Shown: positions 27,267 through 50,099 of the stretch, one piece after another
How positions within the stretch are numbered: the stretch's first letter is position 1
Layout of the letters: each line of letters starts with the position of its first letter
Program-made: the position numbers and the translations under genes
Notes under the pieces: model-generated
What the model was told of the DNA's origin: nothing
Database searches by the model: none
Seen by the model: the letters and a program-made list of their open reading frames with translations, nothing else
NCBI RefSeq assembly: GCF_002278035.1
Contig: NZ_CP022604.1
Coordinates: forward strand, 310,001-374,000
Direction: 5' to 3'
Source: Ochrobactrum quorumnocens
Lineage (GTDB): Bacteria > Pseudomonadota > Alphaproteobacteria > Rhizobiales > Rhizobiaceae
Length of the DNA: 64,000 nt

Positions 27267-27302
27267 TAAAAAACCGGCCTTGCGAAAACGCAAAAGGCCG
27301 GT
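27267..27302 (-). terminator. Expression-platform terminator of the metZ riboswitch
   Basis: On the minus strand CCGGCCTTTTGCG and CGCAAGGCCGG form a long stem with a TTTT loop, followed by six T. It sits between the aptamer and the metZ start codon. Confidence 0.88.
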
Positions 27303-27313
27303 AACGAACCGCG

Positions 27314-27372
27314 GCCTCATTTAGCGAATTCTTTAACGTGGCTGCAAGCCGGCCGGCCAAATCACCACGGAA
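27314..27372 (-). ncRNA. SAM-II riboswitch
   Basis: The minus strand shows the SAM-II signature in order: GGTGATTTGGCCGG, GCTTGCAGCCACGTTAAA, and CGCTAAA. These are the invariant parts of the H-type pseudoknot that binds S-adenosylmethionine in Alphaproteobacteria. It lies directly upstream of a terminator and metZ, the usual target. Recognition is by recalled consensus. Confidence 0.93.
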
Positions 27373-27571
27373 CACTTTTTCCTTATGCCTCTTGGGCGGG
27401 GTCGTCAATGCCAGAAGGATCAGTTTTCAGGAAAACGCCTGTCTGCCAAAGCTCTGATGGCTGTGATTCCTGCGGAAAACCCGCGAGCTGTGGGGTTTCA
27501 GGGTTGGCATTGGGGTCGAGAGCGGTCAATGGTCATAGACCAAATTTAAGTAAGTCACGGAGTTCAGTGTT

Positions 27572-39152: not shown

Positions 39153-39215
39153 CTTTATAGCTTTTCCCGTAAAAGCGCGAAGCGGTGTGCGTAGGATAAT
39201 GAGTAAAGACAAATA

Positions 39216-39320
39216 AAGCATGTTTCCCAAAAGTGGGAATCGGTTTTGGGAGAAAGACATGCTTAAAAACAAAGAATTAAAGCGTGTCACATGGATATTG
39301 TAAAACGCGGCACGCTTTAG
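39216..39320. repeat. Family B-type repeat and hairpin between prlS and prlR
   Basis: AAGCATGTTTCCCAAAAGTGGGAAT...AGACATGCTT is a family B copy. It is followed by AAAGCGTG/CACGCTTT arms (39282-39320) that end next to the prlR stop and may terminate both convergent genes. Confidence 0.65.
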
Positions 39321-39322
39321 TT

Positions 39323-39973
39323 TCAGCTGGCTTCTGAAGTCAGTGCGTCGTTGCCAATCCGCGATAAAAGAATGACCGCCTGTGTGCGACTATCAACGCC
39401 GAGTTTTTGCAGAACAGCAGAGACATGTGCTTTGACCGTCGCTTCTGATACATTCAGTTCGTAGGCGATCTGCTTGTTGAGCAGGCCTTCGGCAAGCATG
39501 GTCAGTACGCGTGTCTGCTGGGGGGTAAGTGTTCTTATCTTGTTGATGAGCGCTTCGATTTCAGGGTCGTGCGCCTGATCGAGGTCGATATCGGATGGTG
39601 TCCAGATATCGCCTGCAATAACTGCGTGTACTGCTTCGCCGATAGTTTCCATGCTTGCGGATTTCGAGATGAAGCCAGATGCACCAAGCTCGACGGCGTG
39701 CCTGATGGTTGCAGTGTCATCAGTGGCCGAGACGATAATGATCGGTAATGCAGGCTGAAGTGCTTTCAACGTGACCAGGCCAGAAAGGCCAGTCCCGCCG
39801 GGCATGGTCAAATCAAGCAAAAGCAAATCGATATCGTCGCGTTCTACGACCAGCTTTTTCGCTGCATCGAAATCGCCGACTTCGAGGATTTCTGCTTCTT
39901 CAGGAAGGCTCGACAGAACCTGTCGCAACGCACCTCTGAAAAGCGGATGGTCGTCAGCGATGATGAATTGCAT
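39323..39973 (-). CDS. prlR: NarL/FixJ-type response regulator paired with PrlS
   Basis: A 216-residue response regulator. The receiver domain has acidic D7-D8 (IADDHPLF), phospho-acceptor D54 (LLLDLTMPGG), the Thr/Ser in IIVSATDD and Lys in GFISKSAS. A LuxR-type helix-turn-helix covers about 148-205 (LTPQQTRVLTMLAEGLLNKQIAYELNVSEATVKAHVSAVLQKL). It lies convergent to prlS, matching the PrlS/PrlR pair. Start chosen at 39973, where the receiver begins; the longer frame to 40066 adds 31 non-conserved residues. Target genes are unknown. Confidence 0.85.
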   Translation of the reverse strand: MQFIIADDHPLFRGALRQVLSSLPEEAEILEVGDFDAAKKLVVERDDIDLLLLDLTMPGGTGLSGLVTLKALQPALPIIIVSATDDTATIRHAVELGASGFISKSASMETIGEAVHAVIAGDIWTPSDIDLDQAHDPEIEALINKIRTLTPQQTRVLTMLAEGLLNKQIAYELNVSEATVKAHVSAVLQKLGVDSRTQAVILLSRIGNDALTSEAS

Positions 39974-46835: not shown

Positions 46836-47124
46836 ACGTTGGGGAATCTTATCCTGTTAAGCCAATTAAATAGATTTAATTAAAATTCGAAGATTACAAG
46901 TTTCTAAGCCTCTCCCAACAGCTGTGAGGCCAGTTTTGACGATCACTTTTGTCGCGCAGGCTAGCGAACTGCGTTACTTATATATCCTCGTAAGGTCGCA
47001 GGTTTGGCATTGCAGCCATGCAGTTTATGCACTTCTCAAAACGATTAAAAAGGCGGAAGCTTCATATCGGGAGGAAGGCAAAAGCTTAGCGCTTTCACAG
47101 CGCGGCACATAAGGGGATACCACC
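46836..47124. other. Divergent promoter region of the glycan operon and the DUF1127 gene
   Basis: The first 60 bases are AT-rich (TAAATAGATTTAATTAAAA). TTGACG near 46936 is a possible -35 for the DUF1127 gene, without a clear -10. No small gene was found. Confidence 0.4.
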
Positions 47125-47274
47125 ATGAACCACCTTCGTACCCAGTTTTCCCGTTGGATGCAGTATCGCGAAAACCTGCGCGAACTCAGCGGCTGCAGCG
47201 ACCGCGAGCTTTATGATCTCGGCCTGTCACGCACAGATATCCGCCGCGTTGCACACGAGGCTGCTTTCGCCTGA
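47125..47274 (+). CDS. DUF1127 mini-protein (49 residues)
   Basis: A short Arg-rich protein. The C-terminal YRENLRELSGCSDRELYDLGLSRTDIRRVA matches the DUF1127 motif in full. AAGGGG lies nine bases before the ATG. Single-domain DUF1127 proteins are abundant in Alphaproteobacteria; in Agrobacterium and Rhodobacter they affect RNA turnover, phosphate and carbon metabolism and stress. In Rhodobacter one is cotranscribed with CCUCCUCCC-loop small RNAs; here a similar small RNA lies 2.6 kb downstream on the same strand but is separated by a regulator and cidAB. Confidence 0.92.
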   Translation: MNHLRTQFSRWMQYRENLRELSGCSDRELYDLGLSRTDIRRVAHEAAFA

Positions 47275-47591: not shown

Positions 47592-48482
47592 TCAAGCCTT
47601 GTTGCTGCTGTTTTCGCTCTTGCACAGTGTGAGCCAGGCCCGTGCCGCATGGGATAAAAATGCGCCTTTTCGCCAGATCAGGGCCATGTCCCAGTTCAGT
47701 TCTGCGTCTTTGATTTTATGGATGCGGACATCGCGATGCTTGCGCTGTTCGGCGATCATCTGTGGCAGAAAGCCGATACCCATACCTGCTGCAACCAGCT
47801 CCACGATAAAATCAATCTGGCTGGAACGCATGGCAATGTGTGGGGACAGTCCTTGCGAATGACATGCATCGAGAATGATGTGATTGAGGGCAAAGCCGCT
47901 TTCGAAAAGAATGAAGGGCTGGCTGGCAATGTCGTGCAGAGGGATGCCGTCATTGTCGGTGAAGCTGTGGTTGGCGGGAAGCAGGGCCACCACGGGCTCA
48001 CAACGAACGGCCTGCCACTCGAAGCTGCTTTCGACGGACAGAAGCGAAGCGGCAAGCTCGATATCACCTGCAAGCAGCAATTCTTCCAGTCGCCTGCTGC
48101 CATGCTCGACGAGCTGAATGTCGATGTCAGGATAGAGCTTGGTAAAGGTGGCAAAGACTGGGGCGAACAGAACGCTGGAGCCGATGGGTGGCAATCCGAG
48201 GCGCAAAAGACCGCGCTTCAACCCGCGCAACTCGCCAAGCTCAGTCAGCATGTCGTCTTTTTCTGTCAGTATGGCCAGTGCACGTCGATAAACGATTTCA
48301 CCTGCACTTGTCAGGCGGGGAGGGGTGGCTTCGCGATCGAGCAAGATGATCTCAAGTTCATCTTCGAGCTGACGCACCGTCTTGCTGACGGTGGATTGCG
48401 TGGCATTGATCGTGCGGGCCGCAGCGGAAAAGCCGCCCTGCCGCACCACTTCCACGAATGCCTGAAAGCCACGTAAGTTCAT
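47592..48482 (-). CDS. LysR-family regulator of the cidAB-like operon
   Basis: A 296-residue LysR-type regulator. The winged helix-turn-helix (MNLRGFQAFVEVVRQGGFSAAARTINATQSTVSKTVRQLE) occupies residues 1-60 and the PBP2-type effector domain about 90-290. It is divergent from a CidA/CidB-like pair, as CidR is in Bacillus and Staphylococcus, where acetate or pyruvate is the signal. A perfect interrupted palindrome (AGCTATTC-N7-GAATAGCT) lies two bases upstream of its start codon, well placed for autoregulation. The effector here is unknown. Confidence 0.88.
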   Translation of the reverse strand: MNLRGFQAFVEVVRQGGFSAAARTINATQSTVSKTVRQLEDELEIILLDREATPPRLTSAGEIVYRRALAILTEKDDMLTELGELRGLKRGLLRLGLPPIGSSVLFAPVFATFTKLYPDIDIQLVEHGSRRLEELLLAGDIELAASLLSVESSFEWQAVRCEPVVALLPANHSFTDNDGIPLHDIASQPFILFESGFALNHIILDACHSQGLSPHIAMRSSQIDFIVELVAAGMGIGFLPQMIAEQRKHRDVRIHKIKDAELNWDMALIWRKGAFLSHAARAWLTLCKSENSSNKA

Positions 48483-48585: not shown

Positions 48586-48993
48586 ATGAATGCCCATAAC
48601 CTGATGATCCGCTTTCGCTATGCGCTGCACAACAGCCGCTTGATGCAGATTGCGACGCTGGTCGGCTTCTGGTTGGCGGGTGAAGCATTTGTTCGTTTAA
48701 GCGGTCTGCCGCTGCCGGGTGGCATTGTTGGTATGGCACTGGTTTTGGCCCTGCTTTTGAGTGGCCGTGTAAGCCTTTTCAGCATGAAGCGCGGTGCAGA
48801 ATGGTTTCTGGCAGAGATGCTGCTGTTCTTTGTGCCTGCCGTTCTGGCAGTTCTGGAGCATCAGGAGTTGCTTGGTATGCTGGGCGTTAAGATTATGGCC
48901 GTCATTCTGGTTGGCACTCTGACCGTTATGACTGTGACTGCACTGACAGTAGACTTCTGCTACCGGCTGAGCGCACGCTATGCCACTAAGTAA
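48586..48993 (+). CDS. cidA: CidA/LrgA-family holin-like membrane protein
   Basis: A 135-residue protein with about four membrane helices and the LrgA/UPF0299 signature GGIVGMALVLALLLSGRVSLFSMKRGAEWFLAEMLLFFVPAVLAV. In staphylococci such proteins influence cell lysis and biofilm; in Bacillus and plants the CidA/CidB-type pair transports pyruvate or glycolate. It overlaps the next gene by 14 bases. The gene name is by similarity; LrgA would be equally fair. Confidence 0.85.
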   Translation: MNAHNLMIRFRYALHNSRLMQIATLVGFWLAGEAFVRLSGLPLPGGIVGMALVLALLLSGRVSLFSMKRGAEWFLAEMLLFFVPAVLAVLEHQELLGMLGVKIMAVILVGTLTVMTVTALTVDFCYRLSARYATK

Positions 48994-49675
48994 TCCTTAT
49001 GTGGCGACACTGTTCTGGTCTGCTGCCACAATCCTTCTCTATCTTGCTGCAAAGCGCGTTTATCGCCGCTTTCCCATGTGGTGGTTGACGCCGCTTGCCA
49101 TTACGCCGCTGTTGCTTATGGCTCTTCTCATTGGTCTCAATGAAAACTATCGCGGCTATTTCAGTGCAACGCATTGGCTGGTCGCACTGCTTGGGCCTGC
49201 GACGGTGGCTTTCGCCATTCCGATCTATCAGCAGCGCGCAACCATTCGTCGCTATTGGCCGGTTTTGTTGGTTGGTGTTGTGGTCGGCAGTTCGTCCGCG
49301 ATGTTTTCAGCCTGGGGTCTTGCGCAGCTTCTTGGTCTGAACGATGCAATAAGCCTCAGCCTTATGCCGCGCTCCATGAGTACGCCTTTCGCCATGACGG
49401 TTTCCGGTGATATTGGCGGTACACCCGATTTGACAGCCATTTTCGTGGTGCTGACCGGCGTATTTGGCGCGGCGCTCGGCGAAGTCATGCTCAACTGGCT
49501 GCCACTTCGTTCAGCTCTTGCGCGCGGCGCGCTGTTCGGTATGGGCGCACATGGCGCAGGTGTAGCCAAGGCGCATCAAATCGGCAGCGAGGAAGGCTCG
49601 ATTGCCGGACTCGTCATGGTTCTGGTCGGATTGGTCAATGTTCTGGCTGCACCATTCATCGCCCAGCTTCTCTGA
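48980..49675 (+). CDS. cidB: CidB/LrgB-family membrane protein
   Basis: A 231-residue protein with about seven helices. The LrgB signature SLMPRSMSTPFAMTVSGDIGGTPDLTAIFVVLTGVFGA lies at about residues 128-165, and GAHGAGVAKAHQIGSEEGSIAGLVMVLVGL follows. It should act with CidA as a membrane complex, possibly an export route for pyruvate or other organic acids. The overlap with cidA implies coupled translation. An AT-rich hairpin follows the stop. Confidence 0.88.
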   Translation: MPLSNPYVATLFWSAATILLYLAAKRVYRRFPMWWLTPLAITPLLLMALLIGLNENYRGYFSATHWLVALLGPATVAFAIPIYQQRATIRRYWPVLLVGVVVGSSSAMFSAWGLAQLLGLNDAISLSLMPRSMSTPFAMTVSGDIGGTPDLTAIFVVLTGVFGAALGEVMLNWLPLRSALARGALFGMGAHGAGVAKAHQIGSEEGSIAGLVMVLVGLVNVLAAPFIAQLL

Positions 49676-49689
49676 GTTGCTGATTTTTC

Positions 49690-49711
49690 AGCATATTTTT
49701 TATAATATGCT
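49690..49711 (+). terminator. AT-rich hairpin after cidB
   Basis: AGCATATT and AATATGCT pair around TTTTAT, 14 bases past the stop; a third AGCATATT copy follows at about 49720. It is weak as a terminator but the only candidate. Confidence 0.4.
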
Positions 49712-49833
49712 CATTATATAAGCATATTCATCCCGCTTCTGTTTCTGCAATAATCTTAAGCATCGGCGTATTTGCATAACTGATATGCGTTATTGGCCGT
49801 TGTTGAATAAAGAGGCTGCGGGTATTCATTGGT

Positions 49834-49943
49834 CATCGGGTTCACTCCTCCTCCCAGAACCCGATGACGGATACGGCACTCCTCCTCCCAGCCGTATTCA
49901 AGATCAGGCCGCGCATCCTCCTCCCGCGCGGCCTTTTTCTTTT
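49834..49943 (+). ncRNA. Three-hairpin small RNA with CCTCCTCCC loops (cuckoo RNA/CcsR type)
   Basis: Three stem-loops follow each other: CATCGGGTTC/GAACCCGATG (49834-49866), ATACGGC/GCCGTAT (49871-49897) and GGCCGCGC/GCGCGGCC (49907-49933). Every loop displays CTCCTCCTCCC or TCCTCCTCCC, which is complementary to Shine-Dalgarno sequences. The third stem is followed by TTTTTCTTTTT, so it doubles as a terminator on the plus strand. This fits the cuckoo RNA/CcsR family reported in Alphaproteobacteria. The 5' end and promoter were not identified; the transcript may start 30-100 bases upstream. Confidence 0.85.
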
Positions 49944-50099
49944 TCTGATCCCCCAATATCCTGATCTGTTAACGGTGCGTCGCCGCATCGCCATATGGGC
50001 AAGCGTGGTGATGTAAACTATCTCTCGTGCAACTTCACATTTGCGGTGATTGTCTCCGTCTGAGAGACTTGCCGCTACGAAACGCGGGAGATTGCAATC

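What the first reader, a model, noticed from the sequence alone, without database searches (positions are those of the whole stretch)
49834..49943. Small RNA with three anti-Shine-Dalgarno loops (CCTCCTCCC)
Three consecutive hairpins with unrelated stems carry almost the same loop, (C)TCCTCCTCCC, and the last stem doubles as a terminator with a TTTTTCTTTTT tail. Different stems with a constant loop mean selection acts on the loop, which can pair with ribosome binding sites of many mRNAs or with RNA-binding regulators. From recall, this is the cuckoo RNA/CcsR class of Alphaproteobacteria, which in Rhodobacter is stress-induced and linked to a DUF1127 gene. Here it stands alone behind cidAB, with a DUF1127 gene 2.6 kb upstream, so its promoter, size and partners are open.
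Basis: partly seen in the sequence, partly recalled or inferred. Interest (0 to 1): 0.85.

Follow-up and report, generated by a model that had tools for sequence, protein, structure and literature searches.

The report
αr14 sRNA with three anti-SD loops
The feature is a small RNA gene of a known family (αr14/NfeR1), one of six copies in this Brucella-group genome, whose three identical loops probably block ribosome binding sites; the fresh part is a conserved DNA box suggesting that the stress regulator LsrB/VtlR switches it on.

Summary
In detail: three hairpins with unrelated stems carry the loop core UCCUCCUCCC at 49832-49934, and the third is a terminator. It is not a new class: 85.9 bits against Rfam ar14 (RF02344, cut-off 58.8), only 28.5 against CcsR1 (cut-off 65.3), so it is an αr14/NfeR1-type sRNA. 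It is not alone: the genome has six αr14 copies, two of them close downstream of DUF1127-like genes. The same locus is found by DNA match in 34 of 35 same-genus genomes. New here: all 30 orthologues fetched have an inverted-repeat box (window: GCATAACTGATATGC) that fits the published LsrB/VtlR site GCAT-N3-TG-N3-T, 75-77 nt before the first loop. Box plus αr14 occurs in 38 of 297 family genomes. The LsrB/VtlR gene is present after trxB. A DUF1127 gene 2.6 kb upstream has a VtlR-like motif and an invariant GGGAGGAA leader complementary to the loop (30 of 30), though that stretch is predicted to be paired within the leader. No expression data were available. Ordinary as a class, moderately interesting as a regulatory prediction.

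The parts
49774..49788 (+). putative LsrB/VtlR operator GCATAACTGATATGC (fits GCAT-N3-TG-N3-T; inverted repeat)
   Evidence: sequence; 30 of 30 fetched orthologous loci L036-L065 have a box here, 29 in the consensus orientation and 1 (L061) only on the other strand; 10 bp before the putative -35, as in alpha-r14 copies L001 and L004
49799..49804 (+). putative -35 (GTTGTT)
   Evidence: position equivalent to CTTGTA of paralogues L001 and L004, 17-bp spacer; weak match to the alpha-proteobacterial consensus; inference
49822..49827 (+). putative -10 (GTATTC)
   Evidence: position equivalent to CTATTT of paralogues L001 and L004; weak match; inference
49828..49943 (+). alpha-r14 small RNA (Rfam model limits 49828-49939; likely 5' end near 49834 from the promoter spacing)
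   Evidence: RF02344 85.9 bits, cut-off 58.8; ends not mapped
49832..49868 (+). hairpin 1, loop ACUCCUCCUCCCA
   Evidence: MFE pairs; three pairs with changes on both sides in orthologues, one of them clean
49869..49899 (+). hairpin 2, same loop
   Evidence: MFE pairs; all nine pairs form in all 22 distinct orthologues
49906..49934 (+). hairpin 3, loop AUCCUCCUCCC; stem of the intrinsic terminator
   Evidence: MFE pairs
49934..49944 (+). T tail TTTTTCTTTTT of the terminator
   Evidence: sequence
48586..49675 (+). cidA (48586-48993, PF03788) and cidB (48980-49675, PF04172): upstream neighbours, not part of the sRNA unit
   Evidence: neither found within the 1.5-kb upstream flank of orthologue L048 although the sRNA and its box are kept
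47125..47274 (+). DUF1127 gene (PF06568), separate unit; candidate target
   Evidence: same contig, about 2.6-3 kb from the sRNA in 29 of 35 same-genus genomes
47007..47021 (+). VtlR-like motif GCATTGCAGCCATGC upstream of the DUF1127 gene
   Evidence: reported B. abortus motif CAATGCAGCCATGCA (PMC12595884)
47069..47076 (+). invariant GGGAGGAA in the DUF1127 leader, complementary to the alpha-r14 loop
   Evidence: GGGAGGA in 30 of 30 leaders; GGGAGGAA invariant in their alignment, 22-59 nt before the first in-frame ATG; paired within the leader in the MFE fold

Best explanation
49828-49943 encodes an alpha-r14-family (NfeR1-type) trans-acting small RNA of about 110 nt, one of six in the genome. 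Its three loops are redundant copies of an anti-Shine-Dalgarno sequence that pair with GGAGG-type ribosome binding sites of many mRNAs and block translation. Its own promoter is probably activated by the redox-responsive LysR regulator LsrB/VtlR through the box at 49774-49788. Shown here: sequence, predicted fold, family membership, six copies, orthology, conservation of box and spacing, presence of the regulator gene. Shown by others in S. meliloti: LsrB binding to the NfeR1 promoter, redundant anti-SD loops silencing target mRNAs. Inferred: that this copy is transcribed, that VtlR binds its box, and which mRNAs it hits.
For: Rfam ar14 85.9 bits, cut-off 58.8; six copies in the genome, all over the cut-off, 0 of 14 control genomes; fold z = -7.98; loop cores invariant in the 28 orthologues aligned; 96.3% of cells paired in the right register against 34-48% when slid; own arms 7.59 of 8 paired against 5.57 swapped; box 75 or 76 nt before the first loop in 29 of 30 fetched orthologues and 77 nt, other strand, in one; box in 19 of 62 alpha-r14 loci fetched without regard to the box against 30 of 4278 background windows; GCATAACTGNNNTGC occurs three times in the genome, two of them at alpha-r14 copies, backwards control 0; composite box + alpha-r14 pattern in 38 of 297 family genomes, backwards control 0, including 6 of 6 same-genus genomes (own counted) with two matches each; box also before AbcR copy L218; LysR gene right after trxB, matching the LsrB structure 9HH1 at 7.4e-146. 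Literature, passages only: PMC10746234, PMC7143759, PMC8844928, PMC7486931.
Against: No transcript evidence could be obtained. In S. meliloti only one of six copies was detected by northern blot in the conditions tested (PMC7143759), so this copy could be silent. Its -10 GTATTC is a poor match to CTATAT. Three of the six own copies (L003, L005, L006) lack the strict box, as do 43 of 62 alpha-r14 loci, and 259 of 297 family genomes lack the exact composite pattern, whose backwards control tests box and loops together and not the box alone. Orthologue L061 has GCATAACAGATATGC, which fits the consensus only on the other strand. On the loose pattern the window has 4 matches where 1.59 are expected (9 of 100 shuffles reach 4). 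The VtlR RNA-seq study in B. melitensis (passages) stresses AbcR2 and three DUF1127 genes and, in the passages seen, names no alpha-r14; the A. tumefaciens genome search with the VtlR site found one further site besides abcR1 and atu1667. Another LysR protein with a similar site cannot be excluded. Covariation is modest: the number of pairs with double changes was reached by 240 of 500 shuffles.
Confidence: 0.8

Rival explanations
1. It is a CcsR-type cuckoo RNA: made by processing of a DUF1127 mRNA 3' end, RpoH-controlled, acting partly through proteins such as CcaF1.
For: Same loop motif; the cuckoo paper is cited both for the alpha-r14 structure (PMC10746234) and for the DUF1127-CcsR locus (PMC10253847); CcsR1 model gives 28.5 bits, E = 0.00034; DUF1127 gene 2.6 kb upstream.
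Against: CcsR1 score far below its cut-off 65.3; a LysR gene on the opposite strand and cidAB lie between the DUF1127 gene and the sRNA; the sRNA has its own conserved upstream box; in orthologue L048 no cidAB or LysR gene was found within the 1.5-kb upstream flank, and the DNA search gave no match to the DUF1127 stretch in that genome, yet sRNA and box are kept.
Confidence: 0.08
2. It is a decoy or sponge: the three loops titrate an RNA-binding protein or mimic the 16S rRNA tail, and mRNA pairing is incidental. Not exclusive of the first explanation.
For: Loop constancy across unrelated stems is equally expected for protein titration; NfeR1 is described as Hfq-independent and its chaperone, if any, as unknown (PMC10746234).
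Against: In S. meliloti a variant mutated at the three anti-SD seeds no longer lowers a reporter target (PMC10746234). Nothing here tests titration directly.
Confidence: 0.1
3. It is a redundant or silent extra copy: only one or two of the six alpha-r14 genes are used and this one is not transcribed in most conditions. Not exclusive of family membership.
For: Published situation in S. meliloti (PMC7143759); poor -10 of this copy.
Against: The stretch from box to terminator is matched in 34 of 35 same-genus genomes, with invariant loop cores and a changing but mostly paired stem 1, which argues against loss of function.
Confidence: 0.12
4. It is only the terminator region of cidB, with chance C-rich hairpins.
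For: It lies about 150 nt downstream of cidB on the same strand.
Against: Rfam match, conservation, own promoter-like block; in L048 no cidB was found in the upstream flank but the RNA is kept.
Confidence: 0.01

Closest known systems
alpha-r14 family (Rfam RF02344), type member NfeR1/Smr14C2 of Sinorhizobium meliloti
   Same: Family score over cut-off; three hairpins each with the CCUCCUCCC anti-SD loop and variable stems; third hairpin a terminator; about 110-115 nt; six copies per genome; LysR-type box upstream of a sigma70-like promoter
   Different: Different gene neighbours (cidAB here) and weaker -10; the NtrC site of the S. meliloti promoter was reported as not evident in Brucella (PMC10746234) and was not tested here
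cuckoo RNAs / CcsR1-4 of Rhodobacter sphaeroides (Rfam RF02791)
   Same: Loop motif CCUCCUCCC; hairpin modules; alpha-proteobacteria
   Different: CcsR RNAs follow the DUF1127 gene ccaF1 and are processed from its transcript (PMC10253847); score here below cut-off; no DUF1127 gene adjacent to this copy
AbcR1/AbcR2 (alpha-r15, Rfam RF02345)
   Same: Anti-SD-type loop (CCUCCUCCC in L218); an LsrB/VtlR-type box 62 nt before the model start in one of three copies of this genome (54 nt in the window copy)
   Different: Different family model; promoter hexamers of L218 unclear; AbcR1/2 bind Hfq in S. meliloti (PMC8844928) whereas NfeR1 is described as Hfq-independent
sX13 of Xanthomonas (Rfam RF02232)
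   Same: Weak resemblance only (22.3 bits, cut-off 50, E = 0.27); C-rich loops (recalled)
   Different: Not a member by this test

Membership tests
alpha-r14 / NfeR1 (RF02344) | covariance-model score at or above the gathering score | tested here: met
   85.9 bits, cut-off 58.8, full model 1-123
alpha-r14 / NfeR1 (RF02344) | three hairpins, each with an unpaired CCUCCUCCC loop, stems differing between members | tested here: met
   (predicted folds)
alpha-r14 / NfeR1 (RF02344) | Rho-independent terminator as third hairpin | tested here: met
   49906-49944; by sequence only
alpha-r14 / NfeR1 (RF02344) | several copies per genome | tested here: met
   6 in the own genome; 3-8 matches at E <= 0.001 in the 24 same-genus genomes
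alpha-r14 / NfeR1 (RF02344) | stand-alone gene with sigma70-type promoter and LsrB-type box | tested here: inconclusive
   box and spacing conserved in orthologues, hexamers weak, no transcript data
alpha-r14 / NfeR1 (RF02344) | silences mRNAs by pairing at translation initiation regions | not testable with these tools
   known for NfeR1 (PMC10746234); only complementarity computed here
CcsR1 (RF02791) | covariance-model score at or above the gathering score | tested here: not met
   28.5 bits, cut-off 65.3
CcsR / CIN1 locus | sRNA directly downstream of a DUF1127 gene | tested here: not met
   nearest DUF1127 gene found is 2.6 kb upstream with other genes between; layout seen at other copies L003 and L006
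CcsR / CIN1 locus | co-transcription with the DUF1127 gene and RNase E processing | not testable with these tools
   no transcript data
cuckoo RNA family | match to the published thermodynamic matcher | not tested
   matcher not available; the paper PMC4615179 is not held
LsrB/VtlR regulon | site GCAT-N3-TG-N3-T upstream of the promoter | tested here: met
   49774-49788
LsrB/VtlR regulon | binding by, and dependence on, the regulator | not testable with these tools
   none

The most novel reading that the evidence does not exclude
In the Brucella group LsrB/VtlR drives a feed-forward loop that its published target lists have missed: it activates both alpha-r14 anti-SD RNAs (at least the cidAB-side copy and copies L001 and L004) and the nearby small DUF1127 gene, and the alpha-r14 (and AbcR) loops then pair with the invariant GGGAGGAA of the DUF1127 leader, limiting or delaying that protein during redox stress. 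(Probability lowered from 0.20 to 0.17 on checking: the element is fully paired, not partly, in the predicted leader fold.)
Probability: 0.17. Interest if true: 0.55.

Novelty: new member of a known kind. Interest (0 to 1): 0.35.

Why it matters
It places an unannotated multi-copy anti-SD RNA under a candidate redox regulator already known as important for host interaction in Rhizobiales. If right, part of the LsrB/VtlR output that AbcR and the DUF1127 genes do not explain could run through αr14 RNAs, which gene-based RNA-seq tables may leave out. It also shows that in one genome the two published layouts, stand-alone NfeR1-type and DUF1127-linked cuckoo-type, coexist, so their division of labour can be asked directly.

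Tried and rejected
Rejected: CcsR membership. Rejected: DUF1127 gene and sRNA as one operon (intervening genes and opposite strand; orthologue L048). Considered and dropped: that the VtlR-activated 'small proteins' BAB1_0914 and BAB2_0512 are misannotated αr14 loci; PMC12595884 (passages) calls them DUF1127 proteins. Considered: GGGAGGAA as the ribosome site of an upstream ORF in the DUF1127 leader, as in the S. meliloti attenuator (PMC12218461, passages); by eye no start codon follows it consistently in the 30 leaders printed. The inverted repeat around 49718-49738 between cidB and the box is not conserved in the alignment. The leader pattern (TTCTCA ... GGGAGGA) occurs once in the own genome, so it does not recur at other loci. 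The third genome site of GCATAACTGNNNTGC (L067) lies inside a long reading frame and has no αr14; I take it as chance. A first structure count used a misregistered bracket string and is void; one search replaces it. From the alignment scores I draw no conclusion about which copy is closest to NfeR1; S. meliloti itself was not among the listed records compared. Whether VrsA of A. tumefaciens is an αr14 RNA was not tested. Paper search for 'Brucella', 'small RNA' and 'ar14' found nothing; the search (11 papers listed) showed no title or abstract start about αr14 control by VtlR in Brucella; both concern an open-access library only, and PMC10746234 says that the promoters of NfeR1 homologues, Brucella's included, had been aligned before.

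Full report
What is there. The + strand at 49828-49943 holds three hairpins with unrelated stems and the same loop core UCCUCCUCCC, at 49846, 49880 and 49916, followed by TTTTTCTTTTT. In 200 dinucleotide shuffles of the window the 10-mer appeared 0.105 times on average and no triplet of TCCTCCC fell within 110 nt. The shorter CCTCCTCCC is not enriched over the genome as such: 37 places against 39 for the motif read backwards; 18 of the 37 lie in the six αr14 copies. The fold energy is -54.1 kcal/mol, z = -7.98, and the loop cores are unpaired with mean probability 1.0.

What it is. cmscan against Rfam 15 gives ar14, RF02344, at 85.9 bits (cut-off 58.8) over the whole model. A review gives six copies in S. 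meliloti, of which one was detected by northern blot in the conditions tested, and presence in Brucellaceae (passages of PMC7143759). An earlier paper proposed to group the three- and four-hairpin forms into one family and compared them with the two-hairpin RNA RS0680a (passages of PMC3927594). So the kind is known; this locus is a further member.

Organism. Two same-genus genomes carry contigs of exactly the lengths of a Brucella cytisi contig (G001:C1, 2594414) and an Ochrobactrum teleogrylli contig (G022:C23, 405726), so I place the window in Brucella/Ochrobactrum by inference.

Copies. The own genome has six αr14 copies, all over the cut-off; 0 of 14 control genomes had one. The 24 same-genus genomes have three to eight matches at E <= 0.001. 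In a sample of 397 genomes of the order 159 have a match and 89 one over the cut-off. Two of the six own copies, C3:917302-917422 (L003, with a fourth anti-SD hairpin before the model start) and C2:226352-226472 (L006, two clear anti-SD loops), lie close behind frames similar to the window's DUF1127 protein (tblastn E 1.3e-8 and 5.7e-6), which is the published CIN1/cuckoo layout. The window copy is not of that layout: the DUF1127 gene is 2.6 kb upstream with an opposite-strand CidR-like LysR gene and cidAB between. Both layouts therefore coexist in one genome.

Orthologues. A DNA search with 49676-49960 matched the stretch from box to terminator in 34 of 35 same-genus genomes (own counted); the 35th, 72% complete, gave only a weak partial match; 0 of 25 genomes outside the genus matched. 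In the 30 loci fetched, cidB precedes the sRNA in 29 and the glyoxalase/esterase gene follows in 29. In L048 none of cidA, cidB and the LysR gene was found in the 1.5-kb upstream flank, yet the sRNA and its upstream box are kept, so the RNA does not depend on cidAB. In the 28-row alignment (22 distinct rows) all loop cores are invariant, with single-base insertions beside them in some rows. In the right register 96.3% of cells pair, against 34-48% when slid (the structure came from the first row, which favours it). Sixteen cells change on both sides, more than in any of 500 shuffles, and the covariation score likewise; but the number of such pairs, three, was reached by 240 of 500, and further pair types by 500 of 500. 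All three pairs are in stem 1; one of them (columns 13-36, A-U in 13 and G-C in 9) is clean, the other two sit at the fraying base where 9 and 12 of 22 rows do not pair. Helices 3 and 4 never vary and helix 2 has one one-sided change. Orthologues alone therefore give modest covariation. Across 212 distinct αr14-like segments from the loci then held, 399 distinct arm pairs match at 7.59 of 8 positions with their own partner and 5.57 with swapped partners; all eight positions pair in 280 of 399 against 302 of 7958 swaps.

Control region. Upstream of the sRNA the 30 fetched orthologues carry GCATAACTGNNATGC (29) or GCATAACAGATATGC (L061), 75-77 nt before the first loop. The window sequence GCATAACTGATATGC fits GCAT-N3-TG-N3-T, the VtlR/LsrB site given in PMC7486931 and PMC8844928, where it lies at -61 to -49 of PabcR1. 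Here the box is followed by 10 bp, GTTGTT, 17 bp and GTATTC; copies L001 and L004 have the same layout with CTTGTA-N17-CTATTT, and L005 has a degenerate box (read by eye). With a start about seven bases after the -10, the box would lie at about -60 to -46 (inference). Among 65 loci fetched by the Rfam model alone (three without two TCCTCCC left out), 19 of 62 have the strict 15-mer, all at -75 to -78, against 30 of 4278 equal windows further upstream; these loci are not independent, since several are orthologues. GCATAACTGNNNTGC occurs three times in the own genome, at the window copy, at copy L004 and once inside an unrelated reading frame; backwards control 0. The composite pattern box plus αr14 loops occurs in 38 of 297 genomes of the family, 14 of 109 genera, and in 6 of 6 same-genus genomes of that sample (own counted) with two matches each; read backwards it occurs in 0 of 297, a control for box and loops together only. 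Inside the genome, one of three AbcR (αr15) copies, C3:1614235-1614349, has GCATAGCTGCATTGC 62 nt before the model start; the other two have none. [quoted passage not shown]

Against this control reading: 43 of 62 αr14 loci and three of six own copies lack the strict box; the -10 of the window copy is poor; the B. melitensis VtlR study stresses AbcR2 and three DUF1127 genes and names no αr14 in the passages seen, though unannotated RNAs would not appear in gene tables; the A. tumefaciens site search found only one further site; another LysR protein with a similar site cannot be excluded. No transcript data were available to me.

The neighbour. The DUF1127 gene at 47125-47274 (PF06568) stays about 2.6-3 kb from the sRNA on the same contig in 29 of 35 same-genus genomes; in five no match to the DUF1127 stretch was found and in one (G013) no strong sRNA match. 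Upstream it has GCATTGCAGCCATGC at 47007-47021, close to the reported VtlR motif CAATGCAGCCATGCA; the window holds four matches to the loose pattern where 1.59 are expected, so the match alone is weak, and a script pattern for the motif was met in 19 of 30 leaders. GGGAGGAA is invariant in 30 of 30 leaders, 22 to 59 nt before the first in-frame ATG, while an AAGGGG-like stretch sits beside the ATG in most. It gives the best predicted duplex with the αr14 loop among 46 window genes, -16.3 kcal/mol (a local ranking with a crude gene set that ignores folding). Against it: in the minimum-energy fold of 47060-47180 the whole element is paired within the leader, and the leader pattern does not recur in the genome. 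This is the basis of the novel case: regulator, small RNA and small protein in one feed-forward loop. It is a lead and not a result; on finding that the element is fully paired I lowered its probability from 0.20 to 0.17.

Mechanism. Shown here: sequence, predicted fold, family, copy number, conservation, box and spacing, presence of the regulator. Shown by others in S. meliloti: LsrB binds and activates the NfeR1 promoter; the loops pair with ribosome sites and silence mRNAs. Inferred: expression of this copy, binding of VtlR at 49774-49788, targets. I give 0.8 to the αr14 reading with anti-SD action, most of the doubt lying in expression and in the regulator; two of the rivals are not exclusive of it, so the figures do not add to one.

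Novelty. The class is known and known from this group of bacteria; the member, its copy set in this genome, the box at this locus and the DUF1127 leader element are additions. Interest 0.35.

Noticed in passing
47069-47076 and 30 leaders L220-L249: Invariant GGGAGGAA in the DUF1127 leader, 22-59 nt before the first in-frame ATG, complementary to alpha-r14 and AbcR loops; see the section on the most novel reading.
   Followed up: partly
L003 (C3:917302-917422) and L006 (C2:226352-226472): Two alpha-r14 copies lie close behind DUF1127-like frames; L003 has four anti-SD hairpins, L006 two clear ones.
   Followed up: partly
L134 3239-3372 (+) and L154 5707-5840 (-): Seohaeicola and Celeribacter contigs carry the box GCATTGCTGCAATGC followed by a two-hairpin anti-SD RNA with terminator; no Rfam family reached its gathering score there.
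   Followed up: partly
G104:C59, G171:C1, G300:C1, G344:C1, G358:C6: Tandem triplets of alpha-r14 genes, start to start about 157-313 bp, in other same-family genomes.
   Followed up: no
L005 1651-1733 (-): A group II intron domain (RF00029) lies next to an alpha-r14 copy.
   Followed up: no
L006 2903-2992 (+): A glycine riboswitch aptamer (RF00504) lies near another alpha-r14 copy.
   Followed up: no
L217-L219: Three AbcR (alpha-r15) copies in the genome; only L218 has the LsrB/VtlR-type box.
   Followed up: partly
27299-27378 (-): SAM_alpha riboswitch, RF00521, 81 bits.
   Followed up: no
39206-39354 (+): BASRCI27, a Brucella sRNA family, RF02600, 63.6 bits.
   Followed up: no
49718-49738: Inverted repeat AATATGCT...AAGCATATT between cidB and the sRNA, not conserved in the relatives aligned.
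   Followed up: partly
47592-48482 (-): LysR regulator closest to CidR (NF047520, 253.6 bits, cut-off 415), divergent from cidAB.
   Followed up: no
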